NCBI RefSeq assembly: GCF_001625215.2
Contig: NC_030387.2
Span: forward strand, 37,843,606-37,907,605
Direction of reading: 5' to 3'
Length of the DNA: 64,000 bases
Origin: Daucus carota subsp. sativus
Taxonomy: Eukaryota > Streptophyta > Magnoliopsida > Apiales > Apiaceae
Shown: in pieces, positions 5,288-56,801 of the stretch
Numbering within the stretch: position 1 is the first letter of the stretch
Layout: each line of letters begins with the position of its first letter
Translations under genes and position numbers: made by a program
The notes under the pieces: generated by a model
Told to the model about the DNA's origin: nothing
The model's input: the letters and a program-made list of their open reading frames with translations, nothing else
Databases searched by the model: none

Positions 5288-8200
5288 ATGGATTCTAATT
5301 GGGTTTTCAAGTTGGTGGTCTTGTTCAGTTGGGTTCTGTGTATGAGCTCAGGGTTGGTACAATGTAGTGTTACGTATGATAGCAAGGCCATTGTGATCAA
5401 TGGTCAGAGGAGGATTCTTATTTCTGGTTCTATACATTATCCTAGAAGCACTCCTGAGGTACCACTTTATTAGAATCTTTGAAATTAGTGTTTCTTGATT
5501 TTACAAACAGACAGAGAGAGAGAGAGGGAGAGGGGGAGGGGGAGGGAGAGAGGGAGAGAGGGAGAGAGAGGGAGAGGGGGAGGGGGAGAGAGAGAGAGGG
5601 GGAGGGGGAGGGGGAGGGGGAGGGAGGGAGGGAGAGAGGGGGAGGGAGAGAGGGAGGGAGGGAGAGAGGGGGAGGGAGAGAGGGAGAGAGGGAGGGAGGG
5701 AGAGAGGGGGAGAGAGAGAGAGGGAGAGAGAGGGAGGGAGGGGAGAGAGAGAGAGAGATACTTGTTACCAAGACATAAGATTCAGTAACTTAGCACATAG
5801 TAGGCCACAATGCTAGAAATTGATGAATGTATATTCATAATTATATTTATTGTTTTGTGATGGACTGGAATTATTTGTGTAGATGTGGGAAGATCTAATC
5901 CTCAAAGCTAAACAAGGAGGTCTTGATGTTATTGAAACCTATGTCTTCTGGAATGTTCATGAGCCCACCCCTGGCAATGTACACTACCTTTTTATGTACA
6001 TAAAATTGAATATGTATGTAAATTTAGTCTTGTCACTGATTAGCATTTTTTAAATCACCTGCAGTATAATTTTGAGGGGAGGTATGATATAGTGAGGTTC
6101 TTAAAGATAGTGCAGAAAGCAGGGCTCTATGCTCATCTTCGCATTGGGCCTTATGTGTGCGCTGAGTGGAATTTCGGGTACCCTTTGTTTTAGTTTTCTG
6201 AATTTAGATGAGTTTGGTTGAGTAACATTAGTAATGTGTTACCGTTTTTGTGAATTCTGCAGCGGCTTTCCAGTTTGGCTCAAGTATGTTCCAGGTATCA
6301 GCTTCAGAACGGACAATGAGCCATTTAAGGTCATAAAGATTTAACTTTTTGCTATTTCTTGTTCATTCTGTCCCAAGTATACGATGCACAGTTGCAGAGA
6401 AGCGAACTAAATTAGTGAATTGTGGTGTTTCTGCAGAGGGCTATGAAAAGTTTCACCGAAAAGATTGTGAATTTGATGAAAAGTGAAAATATGTTTGAGT
6501 CCCAGGGTGGCCCTATTATACTCTCCCAGGTTTGTTTCCAGAGTTTTTGTTACTTCTATTAATTAATTACACGATCATCTCTGAAAAATTATTTTTTTAA
6601 ATGTTACTGATAAAATGTCTTGTGTACAGATTGAGAATGAGTATGGACCACAAGGTAAAAATCTTGGAGCCGCGGGACATAACTACATGACTTGGGCAGC
6701 GAAGCTGGCCGTCGGCTTGGATACAGGGGTTCCCTGGGTTATGTGCAAAGAAGAAGATGCTCCTGATCCAGTGGTTAGTACTTCTCTTAATTTTACTACC
6801 AGGAGCTGCTCTTGTCAAGTTGCTATCTGTTCATTTGGCCAGGTTCTTACTTAAATCATTTGATTATTTCCTAATGTAGTGTGTTATCTTATGTCGCTAT
6901 TGATGCAGATAAATACATGTAATGGTTTTTACTGTCATAATTTCTCCCCTAACAGACCTTACAAACCCACTATCTGGACTGAGGCTTGGAGTGGATGGTA
7001 TGTTTCTAAGCTTTGTTACTTTAATCAATGATTCGACGAAGAGAGGTCACTTACCATTTCTATGTCTGATATTAAAGGTTTACGGAGTTTGGAGGACCGA
7101 TACATAAGAGGCCAGTTCAGGATCTGGCATTTGCAGTTGCTCGATTCATCCAGAAGGGAGGATCGTTTTTCAATTACTATATGGTAGATTTCCGAAGTGA
7201 CTATCTCCACCAATCTCTTAGACTTTAACTTCTCACTGTCGAATCTGAGTTTTATGTGCACTGTGTATGTAAAATAGTATCACGGAGGCACAAATTTCGG
7301 ACGCTCTGCTGGGGGGCCATTCATCACTACAAGCTACGACTATGATGCTCCACTTGATGAATACGGTAAGCACGCATTGTCATAGTTTCTTTCACCTCCG
7401 TTATTGATTGATCTGATAATCTAGTAGAGATAGCGGTTTGATAAATAATAAGATTCTAAAGATATACTTTTGATGAACAGATATTATCTTGTACTTGGCT
7501 TAGATCTAATTGCTTCATCGTCGTGATCATGATAGGTTTAATCAGGCAACCGAAATATGGTCATTTAAAGGAGCTTCACAGGGCTATTAAGCTATGTGAG
7601 CATGCCTTAGTTTCTGCAGATCCTGTAGTTACTTCTTTAGGAAGTTCTCAACAGGTTTTCACTCTCTTGTCCCACCATTGTTTCTCAATTATTTCTAAGT
7701 TTATGTCTGTTACCGCTACTAAAAGCTGGCAGTTTTCAGGCCCATGTTTTTTCTTCAGAGAATGGAAATTGTGCAGCTTTTCTCGCGAATTATGATACAA
7801 AATCTGCTGCTAGAGTAATGTTCAACAATATGCACTATAAGTTGCCGCCTTGGTCGATTAGCATCCTTTCCGATTGCAAGAATGCAGTCTTCAATACTGC
7901 CAATGTATGTGCATATCATAAGTTACCGATCCATAACAGTTTTAATTGCCGATCCATGTTTCCTGAGAGCAAGATCTGAATTTTGTTCCCCCCATAACAG
8001 GTCGGAGTTCAGGAATCGCAGATGCAAATGTTACCAGTCAGTGCTGATATGATTTCCTGGGGGAGTTACAATGAAGATTTGACTACTCTTGATGACAGCT
8101 CTACGTTCACTACTTTTGGTCTTCTGGAGCAGATTAATGTCACTAGGGATGCTAGTGACTATCTGTGGTACATAACTAGGTAAGAGCAATGTACATCAAC

Positions 8201-19371: not shown

Positions 19372-21074
19372 CTAGAAGTTGTTAGAACTGACCATAAGTG
19401 GTTCAACGAGGAGAGATTTCTCATGACCTGGTAAACAATTCTTCTCCAACATTGATCTTAATGGCTCTATTTCTGACTTTATCTTGTTCTCCTCGTTCTT
19501 GCCCCATACAACCAGATAGAGACCTAGTATGATTAATACGGCTCCAATGATGCTGCAGAAATGTTCAAAAACAGAATAAGGCTTCTAATGTTCTTAACTC
19601 AAACAGTAACACCGAAGATAATAAACTGAAGACTAGGTAGATGACCCAATTAAAGGTTCTTGGTTAAAAAGTAATTAATTTACATGAAGAGAATAATACA
19701 TTATATAAAGAGTTATTTTAAACTATTGTATTGCTGAAACTTACCTTCCCAGAGAGAATGCCTCGCTTAGGAAGACAGAAGCCATGACTGCCGCAACCAG
19801 AGTCTGAAGAGGCAGATATGCTGCAACAAGCATAGGACCTCCCCTTTCAACAACCCATATTTGTATTGCAAAGGCAAGCCCTGAAGCAACTACTCCCTGA
19901 AAGGCCAATCGATTATAATCAATACTTATCAGTAGGGCATATAAGAATTTTGAAACAAATTTGATAAAAACATATGTAGTTGAAAGTTTCATACTGCATA
20001 AATAACACACAAGAGCTCGCTTTGGGAGTGAATTTTCCAGGCCTCGATGTTTCTTTCAGTAAATGCTGCAATCGCTAAAAACTGCATAATAGCAAACAAG
20101 AAAGTATAGCAAGCAATGGACAGCCGAGCTGGATAATTCTTCACCACAGGAGCTTGTAAGACAATCCAACTAGCCCAACATACGCAATGAATTACAAGAG
20201 ATACACAACCTAATGCCCAATTCTTTCCCTCAGTATCTTCCTGAAAACTCATCGACTCTAATTGGTGAGAACCCGAATCTGGGCTATATATGATTGGTCC
20301 CCGGTAAAGGGTTATGATCAAAGCCCCAGCAACACAAGCGAAAGTTCCAAACACCATAGCAAAACCATCTTTTCTTCTCAAATTCACTTCTTCGATCCTG
20401 CAACAATCCTAAAAATGCTCAAGTAATATTAACTTAGAGCCCTGCTTCAAAATATGATTGATTACCTGAAAATTGCAGCCAAAGCAAAAGTAATAGCAGG
20501 GACAGAATTTTCAATAGTAGATGCAAACACTGGGGATGTGTTCTCTAAACCAATAAAGTAGGATCCATTGTTTAATACAACTCTGTTATCATAACATACA
20601 ATCAATAATTGGTCTGTACAATAAATTGCTGCACAAGTACAAGTCAATACCCTTTTCAAAATAAAAACATACCCAACAAGCCCAAGAACGAAAAATTGCA
20701 GAACATATGATGCATTTAGCGCTGGCCTATCTTTCCTGTTCAATAAAAAAGATCACTTTAGTGTGTTTGAGAGCGACAGAAAGAGAGGGAGGGGGAGAGA
20801 GGGAAGGGGGGAGGGAGAGAGGGAGAGAGGGAGAGGGGGGAGAGAGAGAGGGAGAGGGAGAGAGAGAGAGAGAGAGAGATGCTTACTTTTCAAGAAAATA
20901 AGCAAATGGGGAGAGAAGAAGCAATCCAATAGTGATTCTATAAATAAGAAAAACAAGTTTGCTAATGCCAACATTGAGTGCAATTCGGAGAATGATGTGA
21001 TTCCCAGCATAACCAATTTGAAAAATGATCATGGCTATGTGCAGCTGCACACGTTCTGGTACTGATGAAAACAT
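19372..21074 (-). CDS. WAT1-like: WAT1-related EamA transporter (MtN21 family)
   Basis: Multi-pass membrane transporter of the plant DMT/EamA family. Arabidopsis WAT1 exports auxin from the vacuole and is needed for secondary wall formation; the substrate here is not known. Six exons on the minus strand: 21074-20887, 20735-20673, 20582-20466, 20397-19995, 19896-19745, 19552-19372, giving 367 residues, typical for the family. The N-terminus has VQLHIAMIIFQIGYAG and the exon 1 end YFLEKK. Other family blocks are GLENTSPVFASTIENSVPAI, RRKDGFAMVFGTFACVAGA, YRGP, and in the second EamA repeat VVASGLAFAIQIWVVERGGP and SIIGAVLIILGLY. The closest remembered relative is WAT1 itself (FQIGYAG, ISKLVF, YRGPxIY). 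Ten transmembrane segments are expected. Intron 1 begins with a CT tract directly after the donor. Confidence 0.93.
20774..20879 (-). repeat. CT tract at the start of WAT1-like intron 1
   Basis: About 105 bases of GA/GGGA on the plus strand, which is CT on the sense strand. It begins about eight bases after the exon 1 splice donor (GTAAGC). It gives rise to spurious open frames on both strands. Confidence 0.9.
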
Positions 21075-46480: not shown

Positions 46481-47388
46481 ATGGAGTCGGTCAACGCGGC
46501 TTTGAAGAACAGTTTGACTTCGCCGGAGATAGGGTTTTGGGATGACGTGTGTTTGTCGCCGGTTGTTAAGAACGGTGTCGTTTCGGAAGATGATTACGTC
46601 TTCGTCGACGACCTTCTGGACTTCTCCAAAGCGGAGCAGATTGAAAATGAGCATGTGAATGACGATAAAGTTCAGAACGACGGCGTTTTGGTTTCGGATG
46701 TTAAGCGCGAAATTTTCGAGGCTCCTCCGGTGCCGGTGCAGGAGAACGAGCTCTCTGTTCCGGTAAACTTTCGGCTTTATCGTTCATTTCTGCTTCGAAT
46801 TGCGTGCTTTTCGTAATTAGGGTTTTGTGTTGTGAAATTGTTGATGTGTATATATGTGTGTATGTATAGGTGGATGAATTGGCGGAGTTGGAATGGCTTT
46901 CAAATTTCGTTGACGATTCTACCCCTGGATACTCTCTGACTCTCCCGCCGCCTCAAAAGCCGCCGGTCAAACTCGCCGGTCCACGAAAAACCGGCGTCCG
47001 AGTAAGGCCACTCAGTTACTCGACCACGTCATCATCATCTTCCTCTCGTACTTTCGTTATGTGCGGTGATGTCACGCACTCAGCGGAGTCGTTGATGAAG
47101 CCGCCGCTGAAGAAGCCGAAGACGCAGCACGGAGAGCGGCGGTGCAGTCATTGTCTAGTGCAGAAGACGCCGCAGTGGAGAACCGGACCGCTCGGTGCGA
47201 AGACGCTGTGTAATGCGTGTGGAGTGCGGTTCAAGTCGGGCCGGCTTTTGCCGGAGTATAGACCGGCTGTTAGCCCGACGTTTTCGAGCGAAAAACACTC
47301 GAATAGTCACCGGAAAGTGATGGAGATGAGGCGGAAGAAAGAGGGGGACGGTGTCGGTGGGTTTGGAAAGGCGGTTGAAACATTTTGA
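46481..47388 (+). CDS. GATA: GATA zinc-finger transcription factor, class A
   Basis: DNA-binding regulator of plant GATA subfamily I/A, which binds GATA-core motifs in light-responsive and developmental promoters. Two exons, 46481-46762 and 46870-47388, give 266 residues, a typical length. The single C-X2-C-X18-C-X2-C finger has Cys186, Cys189, Cys208 and Cys211 (CSHC ... CNAC), with the class-typical [17 protein letters not shown] and the basic tail [14 protein letters not shown]. The N-terminal half is acidic ([14 protein letters not shown]), and the motif [12 protein letters not shown] is characteristic of the subfamily. A basic KPPLKKPK run before the finger could be a nuclear signal. The coding region is more GC-rich than its surroundings. 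A 5' UTR intron ends just before the start codon. Confidence 0.95.
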
Positions 47389-47399
47389 ATTAGTTGGAT

Positions 47400-48276
47400 T
47401 AGGGTTTTAATTTTTAATTAGTCATGTTAGTTTAGGGATTAGAATGTTGAGGGGATTTGGTTAGGGTGAAGTTGACTGATTAAGTTGAATTAGTTTGAAA
47501 TGCGGTGCTTAATTAGGAATATCTTTAGTTTGATTTAAGTTCGTTTGTAAGCATGGATTTGATTAGTGATAGAGTTCAGTGATTAAGGTTCTTAACTAGA
47601 GATAATCTGTACTCCTACTTTGCCCCTTTGCCCCTGGTTGTGTCTTGTGATGCTGATGACTGGTGATCGTAGCACCAGGGTTGAGTAATCATCATGTTAG
47701 CATTTTCTACTTCTTATAAATGTTTTCGACTTTTTACATAAATGTATAACATGAACTCAGAGTTTTAAACTATAGTAGCTAATGTTTAAGTGAAGGCCGG
47801 ACATCGAAAATTATTATTTTGATGTGTCCCTTTTCACTCTTTGCATATATTTGAATAGAAGAGAGTTTTAAAGAAAAAATAAATTTAAAGACAGGTAAGA
47901 AAGCAACTTTAGTAATAATAACAAGTTAGTTTGACCAAATGGGTTTTGGCCTCTGCATTGCTTAACCCTTGTTATGCGCGGCTTTGTGATGCTCCTTAAC
48001 GTGAAGTTTGAATCTGAAATATTCTCGTGTTGAAAGTAAAACTTAACTCAATGCGACATACTAGTAGTGGCTTTTAACGAATGGTTAACATAATAATGTA
48101 TTAATTCTTGAATATTAAATTTTGCTATTTATACGTTGAATGTAATGTCACGGGATTATTGATGCAAGTCTGCCGGAAGAGAGATCAGAACTTAAAATAT
48201 CTGAAGAAATATACCAAAAATGCAAAAATCATCGTTTCAGTCGAGGTCCCTTATTCAAATTTAAGACTAAATGATG
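47400..48276. other. GATA 3' region and spacer
   Basis: T-rich sequence directly after the stop codon is likely the GATA 3' UTR. The remainder up to the Mutator-like element at 48277 has no recognisable feature; an open frame at 48108-48380 runs into the transposon end and is not credible. Confidence 0.55.
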
Positions 48277-49356
48277 GGGTTAAATGGCGTTTTGATCACT
48301 CAACTGATTACGAATTTTCACTTGGGTCATCAAATTCAAAAAGTTTTCAGCCAAATAATTATACTAATAAAAATTTTTAATCAAATCACTGGCCGTTAGT
48401 AACGTTAGCTTTTGGATGGAAAAATGAGCTGGCTGCTTACGTGACCAACGAAAATCTCGCACTAATTACTTGAAAATCTGAAGCACAAAACTCACAGATC
48501 AAAATCTCTAATTCACCCGACCCACAAAATATCACCGATATTACACATAATCCCATCTTCAAATCCCCGTACAGATCAAACAACACCCATTCATATATTC
48601 AAAACAAACCCTAAACCCCAATTTAATTACATAACCAGAATTCTCATCAACATACCCAAATCCAATTTCACTACAATCTCGATCAAATCACAACAAAACA
48701 AACTATCCAAAACCTCAACAAATTACATAAATTTCACGTATTTAGAGTCCCATGTATATGAAAAGGCTTACAAACAAGAGACAAGACGAGTAGGACGAGC
48801 AAAAACCCAAAGTTCCTACGAAGCACTTCATTCCACGGAGGCCGGAGCATAAAGAACGGTGAAGAAGGAAATGATCATAGTTAAGATCATTTGAGTGGCG
48901 AGAATTTCGTAGATCTTGCAAATGAAGTCCTAAGGGAGTTGATTCTCGTCATGGCTCAAACCTGGGTACAGAGTTGATAGTATGATTCGATGTCAACATC
49001 TTCCTTTCAAGTTGTGTGTATAATTTATGGGTGGAGTTTCTGAATTAGGTTTAATTTGGAAGTTGAATTGATGGTTCTAAATTAGGATAAATATGTGGGT
49101 TTGTGTTGGATCGGGTTAGTATTGGATCGGGTTTAAAGATTAGCGGGTTAAGAAGCTGATTTGTCACGTGATGTGGCACTATCAAACGGCAGGCCGTTTA
49201 AAGTCAAACATATTTAACGGCCGTGAAAATTTTTGTGTGTTTAGTGATTCATTTGAAATATTTACGCTATTAGGTGATTTGAATGAAAGCTTTTCGAGTT
49301 TGATGATCCAAATGAAAATTCGTAGTCAGTTGAGTGACCAAAACGCCATTTAACCC
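48277..49356. mobile_element. Mutator-like element with a captured gene fragment (Pack-MULE-like)
   Basis: The element starts GGGTTAAATGGCGTTTTG and ends with the inverse, CAAAACGCCATTTAACCC. Inverted repeats are long: the outer 110 bases align well (TCACTCAACTGA, TACGAATTTTCA, ATCATCAAA blocks) and weaker similarity continues inward to GGCCGTTA motifs. A perfect 10-base duplication, CTAAATGATG, flanks it (48267-48276 and 49357-49366). Long inverted repeats with a 9-11 bp duplication define MULEs. No transposase frame is present. The interior instead carries a fragment resembling exon 1 of a LIFEGUARD (BI-1-like) gene on the minus strand, listed separately. Confidence 0.85.
48826..48968 (-). 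pseudogene. LFG-like: LIFEGUARD/BI-1-like exon fragment inside the MULE
   Basis: The minus strand translates as YPGLSHDENQLP, a stop, then DFICKIYEILATQMILTM, IISFFTVLYAP, and a second stop. This lines up without gaps against the start of plant LIFEGUARD proteins, whose remembered wording is YPGxSxGENQLRWGFIRKVYGIL then AAQLLLTTLISAVxVL. The conserved RWGF tryptophan position is a TAG codon. Weaker similarity continues upstream to about 49010 (DVDIES-like residues). The rest of the gene, including all later transmembrane segments, is absent from the window. Read as a captured, decayed exon rather than a working gene. Confidence 0.75.
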
Positions 49357-49679
49357 CTAAATGATGTAACTACCTAAAAGCATCTAAAATAAGTTTCGAT
49401 GTTAGCTCTTAACTAAAAAAAATCCAAAAGTTTTGAGCAGTGAGCGGTGAAGTATTGTTCCAGGAGTTTAATGATACAAATGTGCTATAAAAGATTAATA
49501 TAGCAAGTTAAAGACAAGTTTGTTAGATTTGTGTTGTTCTGATTTAAATATCCCAAAAGTTGGTATACCAGATAAGTTCTGCAGAATATCAGAGTTGTGG
49601 ATTCATAGAAATGCAGTAGGAATATATACTAATTATCGCGATTTTTGATTCATTTACAGACTTCTATAGTTCTATTCCC

Positions 49680-51382
49680 ATGGCCCTCGTTCCCATTCTG
49701 CTCACAATTATCTCGGTGATATTACTCGTATCTCGATTTTATAGTAGGCCTTATCCACCAGGGCCGAGAGGCTGGCCGGTGATTGGCAATATGCTGATGA
49801 TGGATCAGTTAACTCACCGTGGGCTCGCAAAGCTTGCGAGCCAGTACGGTGGTATTTTCCACCTCCGCATGGGAATTCGACACATTGTAGTCGTGTCGAG
49901 TCCTGACATGGCACGCCAAGTCCTGGAAGCTCGAGACAAAGTTTCCAATCGGCCTACTAGTATTGCTCTGGATTACCTTTCGTATGGCACGGCCAATATG
50001 GCCTTTGCTGACTACAGCCCTTTCTGGCGTCAGATGCGCAAAATATGTGTCATCAAGCTCTTTAGCCGCGCACGGGCGGAGTCATGGGACTCTGTCCGTG
50101 ACGAGCTGAATGAAATGCTCAGAGTGGTTGCATCAAACGCTGGTCAGGCGGTTAATATAGGTGAGTTGGTGTTTGGGTTTGCGGAGAGGATCATCTATCG
50201 GGCTGCATTTGGATCAAGATTGAGCGACGGGCACGATGATTTTCTTAAAATAATGCAAGAATTTTCAAAATTATTTGGTGCTTTCAATATATGTGATTTT
50301 ATTCCAGGGTTGAGTTGGGCTGATCCTCAAGGGTTCAAAGCTAGACTTAGCAAGGCTCGGGGATCACTAGATGCGTTCATCGACTCCATTATAGAACAAC
50401 ACATATCAAAAAGAAAGGGGAAAAATATCACAGGGCGCGATGAAGGGAACAATGACATGGTGGACGAGTTATTGGCCTTTTACGCTGATGTTGGAGAAGC
50501 AAAAGCTGATTCTGACGATTTATCGAGTTCTATCAAACTCACAAGAGATAACATTAAGGGCATTATTATGGTAAGATTGTGGTACTATTAAGAAACTGTC
50601 ATAATATAGTTGAATTTCTTTATTTTATCGAGTTCATTACTTTATTGAGAGTAAAAATACACTATCTATATTATGTTGGGGCCAGATAAAATATTATTTT
50701 AATGAAGATATTACTTTATCGATTATTACTTAACCAGGGTTTGTTCTGATATTTTCAGGACATAATGTTTGGAGGGACGGAGACTGTAGCGGCCGCTATA
50801 GAGTGGGCAATGTCGGAGCTCCTGAGAAATCCAGAGGAGCTGAAAAAGACTCAGGAAGAGCTTGCCAACACAGTGGGACTCCACCGCTGTGTCGAAGAGG
50901 GAGACTTTGAGAAACTCACTTACCTCAAGTGCGTTCTCAAAGAGACGCTACGGCTCCATCCTCCCCTCCCTTTTCTTTCTCGTGCCACAGCCGAGGACTT
51001 AAATGTCGCTGGCTACTATATCCCAGCCAGGTCTCGCCTCGTGATCAACCTTTGGGCAATGGGGCGTGACAGGAAGTGTTGGAATGACCCTGAAGCATTC
51101 AAGCCCTCCAGGTTTCTCAATGTGGGTGCACCGGACTACAAAATGAACAATTTCGAGTTCTTACCATTTGGGACGGGGCGCAGATCATGTCCAGGCATGC
51201 AGCTTGGCCTTTACACGTTTGAAATGGGCGTCGCTCACCTGCTTCATTGCTTCAACTGGGAACTGCCTGATGGTATGAAGCCGACCCAAGTCGATATGAG
51301 TGATGTTTTTGGACTGTCAGCTCCGAAGGCCACTCGACTCACAGCTGTTCCGAGTCCACGCCTCAAGTGTCCGATTTATTAA
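49680..51382 (+). CDS. CYP84A: Cytochrome P450, CYP84 family (ferulate/coniferaldehyde 5-hydroxylase-like)
   Basis: ER-anchored monooxygenase. CYP84A1 (F5H/CAld5H) hydroxylates coniferaldehyde or coniferyl alcohol at C5 on the way to syringyl lignin and sinapate esters. Two exons, 49680-50570 and 50759-51382, give 504 residues. Features in order: a short hydrophobic anchor (4-18), YPPGPRGWPVIGN hinge, NMLMMDQLTHRGLAKLASQY, I-helix FGGTET (301-306), ExxR at KETLR (358-362), and the heme loop FLPFGTGRRSCPG with Cys441. The C-terminus keeps LPDGMKPTQVDMSDVFGLSAP and ends VPSPRLKCP. The single intron is in the position common to F5H genes. The sequence departs from typical F5H around ARQVLEARDKVSNRPTS and PFLSRATAEDLNVAG, both in or near substrate-contact regions, so it may be a diverged CYP84 with another substrate. 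Confidence 0.92.
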
Positions 51383-55000: not shown

Positions 55001-55490
55001 TGAAGAAAGCACAAACAAATTAAATCAAGAACCATAAGTAACTAGTCCTTTGAAACCCAAGAACAATAGAAAACAAATCCTAAAAACAAAAACAATAGAA
55101 CTCGAGCAGCCCCTATTAAAATCAGTCATATTTGAGATAAAGAGAAGATCTTAATTCAATAGTCAATACAAGGGGGGGGGGGAGAGAGAGAGAGAGGGAG
55201 AGAGAGGGAGGGAGGGAGGGAGAGAGACAGAGAGAGAGGGGGGGAGGGAGGGGGAGAGAGAGAGACCGACCTTGGGGGAGAGAACGAGATATGCCAACAC
55301 AGAGAGGGTTACGAGACTGAGATTTAAAGGAGGATGAATAATAAAGACACCCTTTACAAGATTTCCCTTTAGTATTATTCAGATTTGGATTGTTTGTTGC
55401 TGCTCCTCCTCTGTTATTTAAATTCTTGTTGGCTTGATTCTGGGTTTCATCATCTCTTACTGAAGCAATTGCACTTTCTTCCTTCTCCAT
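52045..55490 (-). CDS. Small plant protein with conserved Cys motif, unknown function (DUF8204-like)
   Basis: Five exons on the minus strand, 55490-55271, 53598-53432, 53081-53015, 52347-52278 and 52165-52045, close to 214 residues. The conserved core is GKSCKGCLYYSS (Cys45, Cys48), then RNPLCVG (Cys64), VGKSEVEAHEKGRDFADFRY, GCVGYSVY (Cys100) and ELPACIGIEVLVDRK (Cys125). A metal-binding or disulfide-stabilised fold is plausible, but no function is known to me. The N-terminus is Asn-rich and disordered. The tail VSVGDEFLKRFTRNAGLVAAG and DDILYPYRRPPK looks conserved and is encoded by the last two exons. No signal peptide or membrane segment. I recall this pattern as the plant DUF8204 family. 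Intron 1 starts with CT repeats next to the non-standard-looking donor GTCGGT. Confidence 0.85.
55171..55265 (-). repeat. CT tract at the start of intron 1 of the Cys-motif gene
   Basis: About 95 bases of GA/GGGA on the plus strand, led by a run of G at 55171-55181. On the sense strand the CT run begins about five bases after the exon 1 donor GTCGGT. Confidence 0.9.
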
Positions 55491-55499
55491 CTCTTTCTC

Positions 55500-56801
55500 T
55501 CTCAGCCCTTATTTTGTTTTCATCTTGCTCTCGTTTGCTTTCTCCGATCACATATATCAGGTTATAGGTTAGGACTAGGGGCCTCATGCGCTTTCGTTCC
55601 CTTTTTTCCCACTATAATATTTCATTTTATTTTTACTAATTTATAGAAACTCAGTTGATATTTTATTTTAGTTTAATTTTAACAAATTAGAACCAAAATA
55701 TATTATAATTATTAGTTTAACTAGTTTAAACAAATTTTCACATATAGGTATATTTTGAGATAGAATATTAAAAATTAATTATTTTTGCAAGGTTTGAAAA
55801 TAAATCTTATAAGAACTTATCACGACTTTTTGAAAAAAGCAGCTTTCCTACTAAAAATTCTCTAGATATTTTTTTAAAATTTATAAATCAATTTTTTAAC
55901 CTAATTTTACGCAAAAAAAACAAATATGAATGTGTTCAGCATCAATAAATAAATCATAAAAAAATGGTGTGAGATCAAGAGAGCAGTGAGATTATATACA
56001 TATAATTATGATAAACAATGTTATATTAGTTATGACAAAAAAAAACAATATTATATGAGCTTTACTTTGTAAACTCGTTAAAGTTAATACAGTAATTATG
56101 AAGAAAATGAGTCAAGTTTTCTCAAAAAAAATAAAGGAACCGGATGTGTTTTGATATTCTTCGCAGATTTGGGGATATGAAACACAATACCAAAAAAAAA
56201 ATTAAGTATCCAAACTGATGATGCAAATTCTTTATATATATTGTGAATTGTAAAATGTTACTACCATCCATCGAGTGGTTGAGTACTTGAAATGATCATA
56301 ATAACATAACCTCAGTTCCATGGAAGAGTAGTTCATATCTGTAATAAAATTTCATCATTACTTAAATTCAATCAAACTTCTAAAAACTAAACTATACTCT
56401 ACAACATAGTTATATTATGTACCTATATTTTGAGATTTCTAATATTTATAATAATTTATTTAAACTAACGCCGTTAGCAACACTTGATAGAAATACACGA
56501 ATTAAGAAAAATCTTGAAATGCAATATTGCAGGTGATTTTTAAGTGTTGTAAAGCCCAAACTACATGTACATAGAGTGTACTTTTACCTAATTATACTGC
56601 ATAGACTATACCATCCCTGAAAAAAGCTATACCAGAATTTGAAATGATCAAATCCAATACAAAAAAGTTTGTATTTGAAAGGACACTATACACAACCAGC
56701 TACTTTGGAAGAAAATAAAAAAAATCAGCACAACCAGCTACTTTGTGCAAAAGAAAATATAAAATCAGTTTAACTGAAATAGCCACTAGCCGGCTTTTGC
56801 T
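55500..56801. other. Spacer between the Cys-motif and DUF726 genes
   Basis: The first part is the promoter and leader of the Cys-motif gene; the last part is 3' flank of the DUF726 gene. Between them is AT-rich sequence with no recognisable feature. Confidence 0.6.

What the first reader, a model, noticed from the sequence alone, without database searches (positions are those of the whole stretch)
48277..49356. Pack-MULE-like element carrying a LIFEGUARD (BI-1-like) exon
A complete MULE boundary is visible: inverted repeats of at least 110 bases and a perfect 10-base target duplication (CTAAATGATG). It holds no transposase but does hold a host-gene fragment. The minus-strand peptide YPGLSHDENQLP, stop, DFICKIYEILATQMILT, IISFFTVLYAP aligns gap-free with the N-terminus of plant LIFEGUARD anti-cell-death proteins. 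Capture of a LIFEGUARD exon would be a concrete case of gene-fragment shuffling, and an antisense transcript from such a copy could affect the parent gene.
Basis: partly seen in the sequence, partly recalled or inferred. Interest (0 to 1): 0.75.

Follow-up and report, generated by a model that had tools for sequence, protein, structure and literature searches.

The report
Transposon carrying an anti-cell-death gene fragment

Summary
Confirmed. 48277-49356 is a complete non-autonomous Mutator-like element: imperfect inverted repeats (about 114 nt per arm, 89% over the outer 81) and a perfect 10-nt target duplication. It holds a LIFEGUARD (BI-1-like) fragment whose parent gene lies in the same genome (C1:34.93 Mb). 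The captured piece (48445-49006, minus strand) is longer than reported: exon 1 from codon 10, the splice donor and about 310 nt of intron 1, so genomic DNA was captured. Seven element copies share the 5' junction and six the 3' junction: one capture, then amplification. TIR relatives carry MULE transposase domains. LFG-less relatives indicate that the fragment replaced the transposase from about its start codon, same sense. Later exon changes fit neutral decay. This copy has a stop, two frameshifts, no ATG in the 150 nt upstream and no exact 21-mer shared with the parent exon, so the proposed antisense effect is weak here. It ends 129 nt upstream of a TATA-like box of a P450 gene. Ordinary in kind: a new, well-traced Pack-MULE.

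The parts
48267..48276 (.). left target site duplication CTAAATGATG (10 nt; 9-nt register also possible)
48277..48390 (+). left terminal inverted repeat (GRF-gene side of the MULE family)
   Evidence: side assigned from L022
48277..48444 (+). left MULE terminal and subterminal sequence, shared with LFG-less family members (query 1-167)
48445..48771 (-). captured 5' part of LFG intron 1, including the retained splice donor (GTAAGC reading down from 48771)
48772..49006 (-). captured LFG exon 1 from codon 10 to its 3' end; in this copy one stop (TAG 48930-48932), a 1-nt deletion near 48978 and a 7-nt insertion near 48835-48841
49007..49356 (-). right MULE end including the region upstream of the (lost) mudrA-like start codon; the LFG junction lies about where that start codon would be
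49243..49356 (-). right terminal inverted repeat
49357..49366 (.). right target site duplication CTAAATGATG

Best explanation
The feature is a non-autonomous Mutator-like transposon (Pack-MULE) in a 441-Mb plant genome, probably carrot. Shown by alignment: an ancestral family member carries, in place of its interior from about the start codon of the transposase gene, about 0.55 kb of genomic DNA matching the LIFEGUARD gene now at C1:34.93 Mb, from codon 10 of exon 1 through the splice donor into intron 1. Shown: that chimera is present at seven loci with the same 5' junction (six keep the 3' junction too), four of them with clear and different target duplications, so one capture was followed by amplification. 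One copy lies 129 nt upstream of a TATA-like box of a P450 gene in this window. Shown: each copy has stops or indels in the exon, and substitutions that differ among copies fit no coding constraint. Inferred: capture took place by ectopic DNA filling (gap repair or template switching) during transposition. Inferred: transposition used a transposase supplied by an autonomous relative. Inferred: the fragment has no protein function, since this copy has no usable start and the piece would hold only the first part of the protein. Any effect would be regulatory, through transcription from the TIRs or through spacing in the P450 promoter.
For: Complete boundary with TSD. Intact LFG gene aligned across exon 1, donor and intron 1; ungapped identity of the window copy 187 of 228 in the exon and 243 of 295 in the intron. 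Searching the captured DNA alone in its genome gave 8 first-look candidates, all scored: 7 element copies and this one gene. PF01027 searched in the genome gives 16 matches: 15 in six LFG/BI-1 gene loci and 1, unaided, in a sibling element copy at C3:41446404-41446628, E = 0.0027. The fetched stretches of the other five LFG loci show only short chance-level DNA matches to the captured piece. 5' junction kept in 7 of 7 copies, 3' junction in 6 of 7. TIR relatives L022 and L058 carry a GRF zinc finger gene and a mudrA-like N-terminal ORF, and further relatives carry PF10551, PF03108 and PF04434. mudrA-like ATG 348 to 379 nt from the right end in L019-L022, LFG junction at 351. Non-fixed exon changes 25 synonymous of 74 against an expected fraction of 0.322, p = 0.80.
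Against: Identity to the parent is only 74% with gaps (82% ungapped), so the donor could have been a now-lost close duplicate of the C1 gene. Exon 1 was recognised in the fetched stretches of only 3 of the 5 other LFG loci; for the other two the exclusion rests on the genome-wide search. The window copy itself is not among the PF01027 matches in the genome. Pairwise dN/dS against the gene is low (0.15-0.30); I read this as synonymous change on the gene's own branch (fixed differences 10 S: 2 N), but constraint before amplification is not excluded. TSDs are unclear for C1:27.48 and absent for C2:46.04, and C2:33.34 lacks one end and was not tested. TIRs of the relatives with transposase domains (L059, L062, L063) are only 65-76% similar over 72-191 nt, their transposase ORFs were not shown to be intact, and the mudrA-like N-terminal ORFs of L022, L058 and L061 hit no Pfam family. 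No expression data are held.
Confidence: 0.97

Rival explanations
1. The captured LFG fragment has a regulatory role: the ends of the element transcribe inward from both sides, giving double-stranded RNA and small RNAs that act on the parental LFG gene.
For: In L022 the two family genes face each other, so sense RNA from the right end and antisense RNA from the left end are plausible. The C3 and C2:33.34 copies share 16 and 11 exact exonic 21-mers with the parent. [quoted passage not shown]
Against: The window copy shares 1 exact 21-mer with the parent and none in the exon. Substitutions among copies look neutral. No transcripts or small RNAs could be examined.
Confidence: 0.07
2. The fragment arrived by retroposition of an LFG mRNA (processed pseudogene) that was later bracketed by MULE ends.
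For: Exon sequence lies inside a mobile element.
Against: Intron 1 sequence and the unspliced donor are present and aligned; in the alignment the 3' junction runs from intron sequence straight into MULE sequence, with no poly-A tract.
Confidence: 0.01
3. A sub-question of the best explanation: capture occurred by two neighbouring family elements bracketing the LFG segment and moving together, as proposed for Pack-TYPE elements, rather than by gap filling.
For: A published model for Pack-TYPE elements (PMC8903248, section 9 read).
Against: The 9.5 kb held around the parent gives only one weak 27-nt TIR-like match, E = 0.007. The junctions fall inside one element's interior with no internal TIR visible in the alignment. 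Wider flanks could not be fetched.
Confidence: 0.15
4. The inverted repeats and LFG resemblance are chance or recalled pattern matching.
For: The peptide alone gives no Pfam match and only chance-level solved-structure matches.
Against: Nucleotide alignment with an intact gene, E about 1e-109 against the fetched loci and 3e-105 in the genome; multicopy family with TSDs.
Confidence: 0

Closest known systems
Pack-MULEs of rice (Jiang et al. 2004, seen only as a reference in PMC13317346; figures from passages of PMC8277862)
   Same: Mutator-type TIRs, TSD, internal host-gene fragment, parent elsewhere in the genome, several copies (36% of rice Pack-MULEs are multicopy, 481 of 1337, passage of PMC8277862)
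   Different: Different species and gene. Here the fragment stands in place of the transposase from about its start codon, and LFG-less relatives as well as relatives with transposase domains are identified in the same genome
Pack-TYPE transposons (PMC8903248, outline and section 9 read)
   Same: Non-autonomous TIR element with captured coding DNA
   Different: The neighbouring-insertion capture model finds no support in the 9.5 kb of parental flanks examined here
Plant LIFEGUARD / Bax inhibitor-1 family (PF01027; PMC11395134, passages)
   Same: Captured exon 1 and its intact parent are LFG sequences
   Different: The element keeps only part of exon 1 and of intron 1, broken, so it is not an LFG gene

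Membership tests
Mutator-like element (MULE) | long terminal inverted repeats | tested here: met
   about 114 nt per arm, 81-89%
Mutator-like element (MULE) | target site duplication of about 9-11 nt | tested here: met
   10 nt here. Perfect 9-11-nt duplications in 14 of the 18 loci scored, this one included; L013, L018 and L023 imperfect, L014 none; L016 was left out before scoring because one end is missing. In 5 of 5 larger relatives perfect runs of 9-12 nt (some runs include terminal bases of the TIR)
Mutator-like element (MULE) | mobilised by a MULE-type transposase | tested here: inconclusive
   Relatives with PF10551, PF03108 and PF04434 inside related TIRs exist, but that they move this element was not tested
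Pack-MULE | carries non-transposon host gene DNA between the TIRs | tested here: met
   LFG exon 1 and intron 1
Pack-MULE | no transposase of its own | tested here: met
   longest stop-to-stop frame within the element is 128 aa; 8 of its frames scanned against Pfam gave no transposase family, only two weak unrelated matches at E above 0.07
Pack-MULE | parental copy elsewhere, not linked to the element family | tested here: met
   C1:34.93 Mb; only one 27-nt weak TIR-like match in the 9.5 kb around it; wider flanks not fetched
Functional LIFEGUARD gene | open reading frame with the full Bax1-I domain | tested here: not met
   stop, two frameshifts, only profile positions 2-53 of 207 covered, no ATG in the 150 nt upstream in this copy

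The most novel reading that the evidence does not exclude
A MULE family swapped the coding part of its transposase for the first exon of an anti-cell-death gene in the same sense, and copies of it now supply convergent transcripts and small RNAs that tune the parental LIFEGUARD gene, while this copy also changes the promoter of the neighbouring P450 gene.
Probability: 0.05. Interest if true: 0.6.

Novelty: new member of a known kind. Interest (0 to 1): 0.3.

Why it matters
It is a cleanly traced case of gene-fragment shuffling in a genome, probably carrot, for which I found no Pack-MULE description (searches, held open-access library only). The donor gene, LFG-less relatives, relatives with transposase domains, both junctions and the later decay can all be seen. 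It suggests that capture can fall at the start of the transposase gene, which would put host exon DNA behind the transposon's own promoter.

Tried and rejected
The first-reader peptide alone against Pfam and solved structures gave nothing useful, and the frame-joined reading gave nothing in NCBIfam. A processed-pseudogene origin was rejected because of the intron. Selection on the captured exon was considered because pairwise dN/dS is 0.15-0.30. It was not adopted: the excess of synonymous changes lies in fixed differences between the gene and the copies (10 S of 12, p = 4e-4), while changes that differ among copies match the intron mutation spectrum (25 S of 74, expected 0.322, p = 0.80; private 14 of 47, p = 0.88; shared 11 of 27, p = 0.41). 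The C2:33.34 copy (L016) has a different far end and 520 extra bases, so its intron part and its whole-element distances are misaligned; it was left out of the intron counts and spectrum but kept in the exon counts. In one search the locus L042 was left out because it is an element copy. Literature: no paper in the held library has both Pack-MULE and LIFEGUARD, none has all five carrot/MULE terms, and the six that hold both carrot and Pack-MULE do not look to be about carrot Pack-MULEs from their titles and abstract starts (listing only).

Full report
OBSERVATION. The element runs from 48277 to 49356. Its ends are inverted repeats, 48277-48390 and 49243-49356; the outer 81 nt are 89% complementary and the gapped alignment of 117 columns is 81% identical. 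A perfect 10-nt direct repeat CTAAATGATG flanks it. One C is shared, so a 9-nt register cannot be excluded, but other family members also favour 10 nt. In the window the terminal 18-mer, allowing 3 mismatches, occurs only at these two ends.

HOST. The window is G000:C7:37843606-37907605 of a 441,086,747-base assembly in 11 contigs. Size suggests carrot: a passage of PMC11593857 gives a 440.7-Mb carrot assembly and 2n = 18. This is inference; no tool named the organism.

LFG IDENTITY. Joined with X at the breaks they hit PF01027 Bax1-I at E = 8e-4, positions 2-53 of 207, below the curated cut-off; 0 of 10 shuffles did. The clear evidence is from the genome itself. Locus L009 (C1:34926500-34936000) holds an LFG gene with an open exon 1 that begins MYGFTSISSKEDVDIESGSSTLYPGLSHGENQLRWGFIRKVYGILAAQ (ATG at L009:4108), with later exons downstream (PF01027 matches in those exons). 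A 91-residue reading of its exon 1 and the first intron codons hits Bax1-I at 1.7e-5. The element's minus strand from 49006 down to 48445 aligns with L009:4135-4673, which is codon 10 of exon 1 to its end, the donor GTAAGC, and 310 nt of intron 1. Ungapped identity is 187 of 228 in the exon and 243 of 295 in the intron. A PF01027 search of the genome gave 16 matches, 15 in six LFG/BI-1 gene loci and 1 in a sibling element copy; the window copy itself, with its broken frame, is not among them. In the stretches fetched for the LFG loci, only the C1:34.93 Mb gene aligns with the captured DNA; the other five give only short chance-level matches, though exon 1 was recognised in only three of those five. 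The genome-wide search of the captured DNA agrees.

ONE CAPTURE, SEVERAL COPIES. Searching the captured 563 bases alone gave 8 first-look candidates, all scored: the window copy, six other element copies and the parent gene. The copies are C7 (window), C4:30.26, C3:41.45, C1:27.48, C2:46.04, C9:3.15 and C2:33.34 Mb; the last has a different far end and 520 extra bases. An eighth locus, C4:48.105 Mb (L017), has lost the interior except a short intron tail. All seven keep the 5' junction and six keep the 3' junction. Perfect duplications of different sequence flank C7, C4, C3, C9 and L017; C1:27.48 is ambiguous, none was found for C2:46.04, and C2:33.34 was not tested. The window copy and the C4 copy are closest (94.4% over 1,045 aligned sites) and share the 7-nt insertion; a 1-nt deletion is shared by C7, C4, C1:27.48 and C9. 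At a recalled neutral rate of 7e-9 per site per year the C7/C4 split would be roughly 4 million years old; this is only an order of magnitude.

THE TRANSPOSON FAMILY. Many other loci share the ends (about query 1-167 and the right 200-350 nt) but not the LFG part. L022 (C6:21313430-21316074, 2,645 nt, TSD CATTTGCATT) carries, facing each other, a GRF zinc-finger ORF (PF06839, 5.6e-8) and a mudrA-like N-terminal ORF that hits no Pfam family; I call it mudrA-like because relatives of it carry the domains named next. Relatives of that ORF (39-46% identical) lie in larger elements with related GGG-type ends. L062 (3,908 nt, TSD TTCATATAAA) and L063 (4,685 nt) carry PF10551 MULE, PF03108 and PF04434 SWIM domains, each spread over two frames; L059 carries PF03108 and SWIM. 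Their ends are 65-76% like those of the window element. This places the family in the Mutator superfamily; an intact autonomous partner was not shown.

WHERE THE CAPTURE FELL. Six relatives start a mudrA-like ORF with MVRTRSG or MMRTRSG (L019-L022, L058, L061). Its ATG lies 348 to 379 nt from the right end in L019-L022. In the window copy the LFG junction is at 351 in the same orientation. The flanking MULE sequence aligns up to about that point and stops aligning there. So the LFG fragment stands in place of the transposase coding region, in the same sense. In the window copy no ATG occurs in the 150 nt before the junction; the ATG at the junction is out of frame and opens a 16-residue peptide. 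Two sibling copies (C1:27.48 and C9) have an ATG 147 nt upstream that is in phase by distance; whether it stays open was not examined.

DOES IT DO ANYTHING? Coding function is unlikely for the reasons above. Substitutions that differ among copies fit the mutation spectrum of the captured intron (25 synonymous of 74, expected fraction 0.322, p = 0.80), whereas fixed differences between gene and copies are mostly synonymous (10 of 12), as expected for change on the constrained gene's branch. The low pairwise dN/dS of 0.15-0.30 is a result that could be read against neutrality, and constraint before amplification is not excluded. For the antisense idea: of 636 21-mers in the compared parental stretch the window copy shares 1, none of them exonic, while the C3 and C2:33.34 copies share 23 and 22, of which 16 and 11 exonic. 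Any small-RNA effect would come from those copies rather than from this one. The element ends 129 nt upstream of a TATA-like box (49485) and 324 nt upstream of the ATG (49680) of a P450 gene, so an effect on that promoter is the more direct local hypothesis, untested.

VERDICT. It is a new, well-traced member of a known kind.

Noticed in passing
window 49485-51379 (+): Cytochrome P450 gene (PF00067) with a TATA-like box at 49485 and ATG at 49680; from recall it resembles ferulate 5-hydroxylase (CYP84). The element lies 129 nt upstream of the TATA-like box, in the proximal promoter.
   Followed up: partly
window 46870-47385 (+): GATA zinc-finger gene upstream of the element (PF00320).
   Followed up: partly
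L018/L019 (C2:41.61 and 41.63 Mb) and L020/L021 (C9:29.02 and 28.94 Mb): Pairs of LFG-less family members share flanks and near-identical target duplications (88.7% over 1,475 and 99.3% over 1,368 columns), so these look like segmental duplications rather than separate insertions.
   Followed up: partly
L022:201-2845, L058:6303-9341: Family members carry a GRF zinc-finger gene (PF06839) facing a mudrA-like N-terminal ORF; the GRF gene seems to be a second gene of this MULE family.
   Followed up: partly
L023-L026, L027/L028: Other subfamilies with the same ends carry different interiors whose origin was not traced; they may be further captures.
   Followed up: no
window 5445-5789, 20625-21062, 55125-55508: Long low-complexity frames rich in S/L/P or R/G/E, as simple GA/CT-rich repeats would give.
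   Followed up: no
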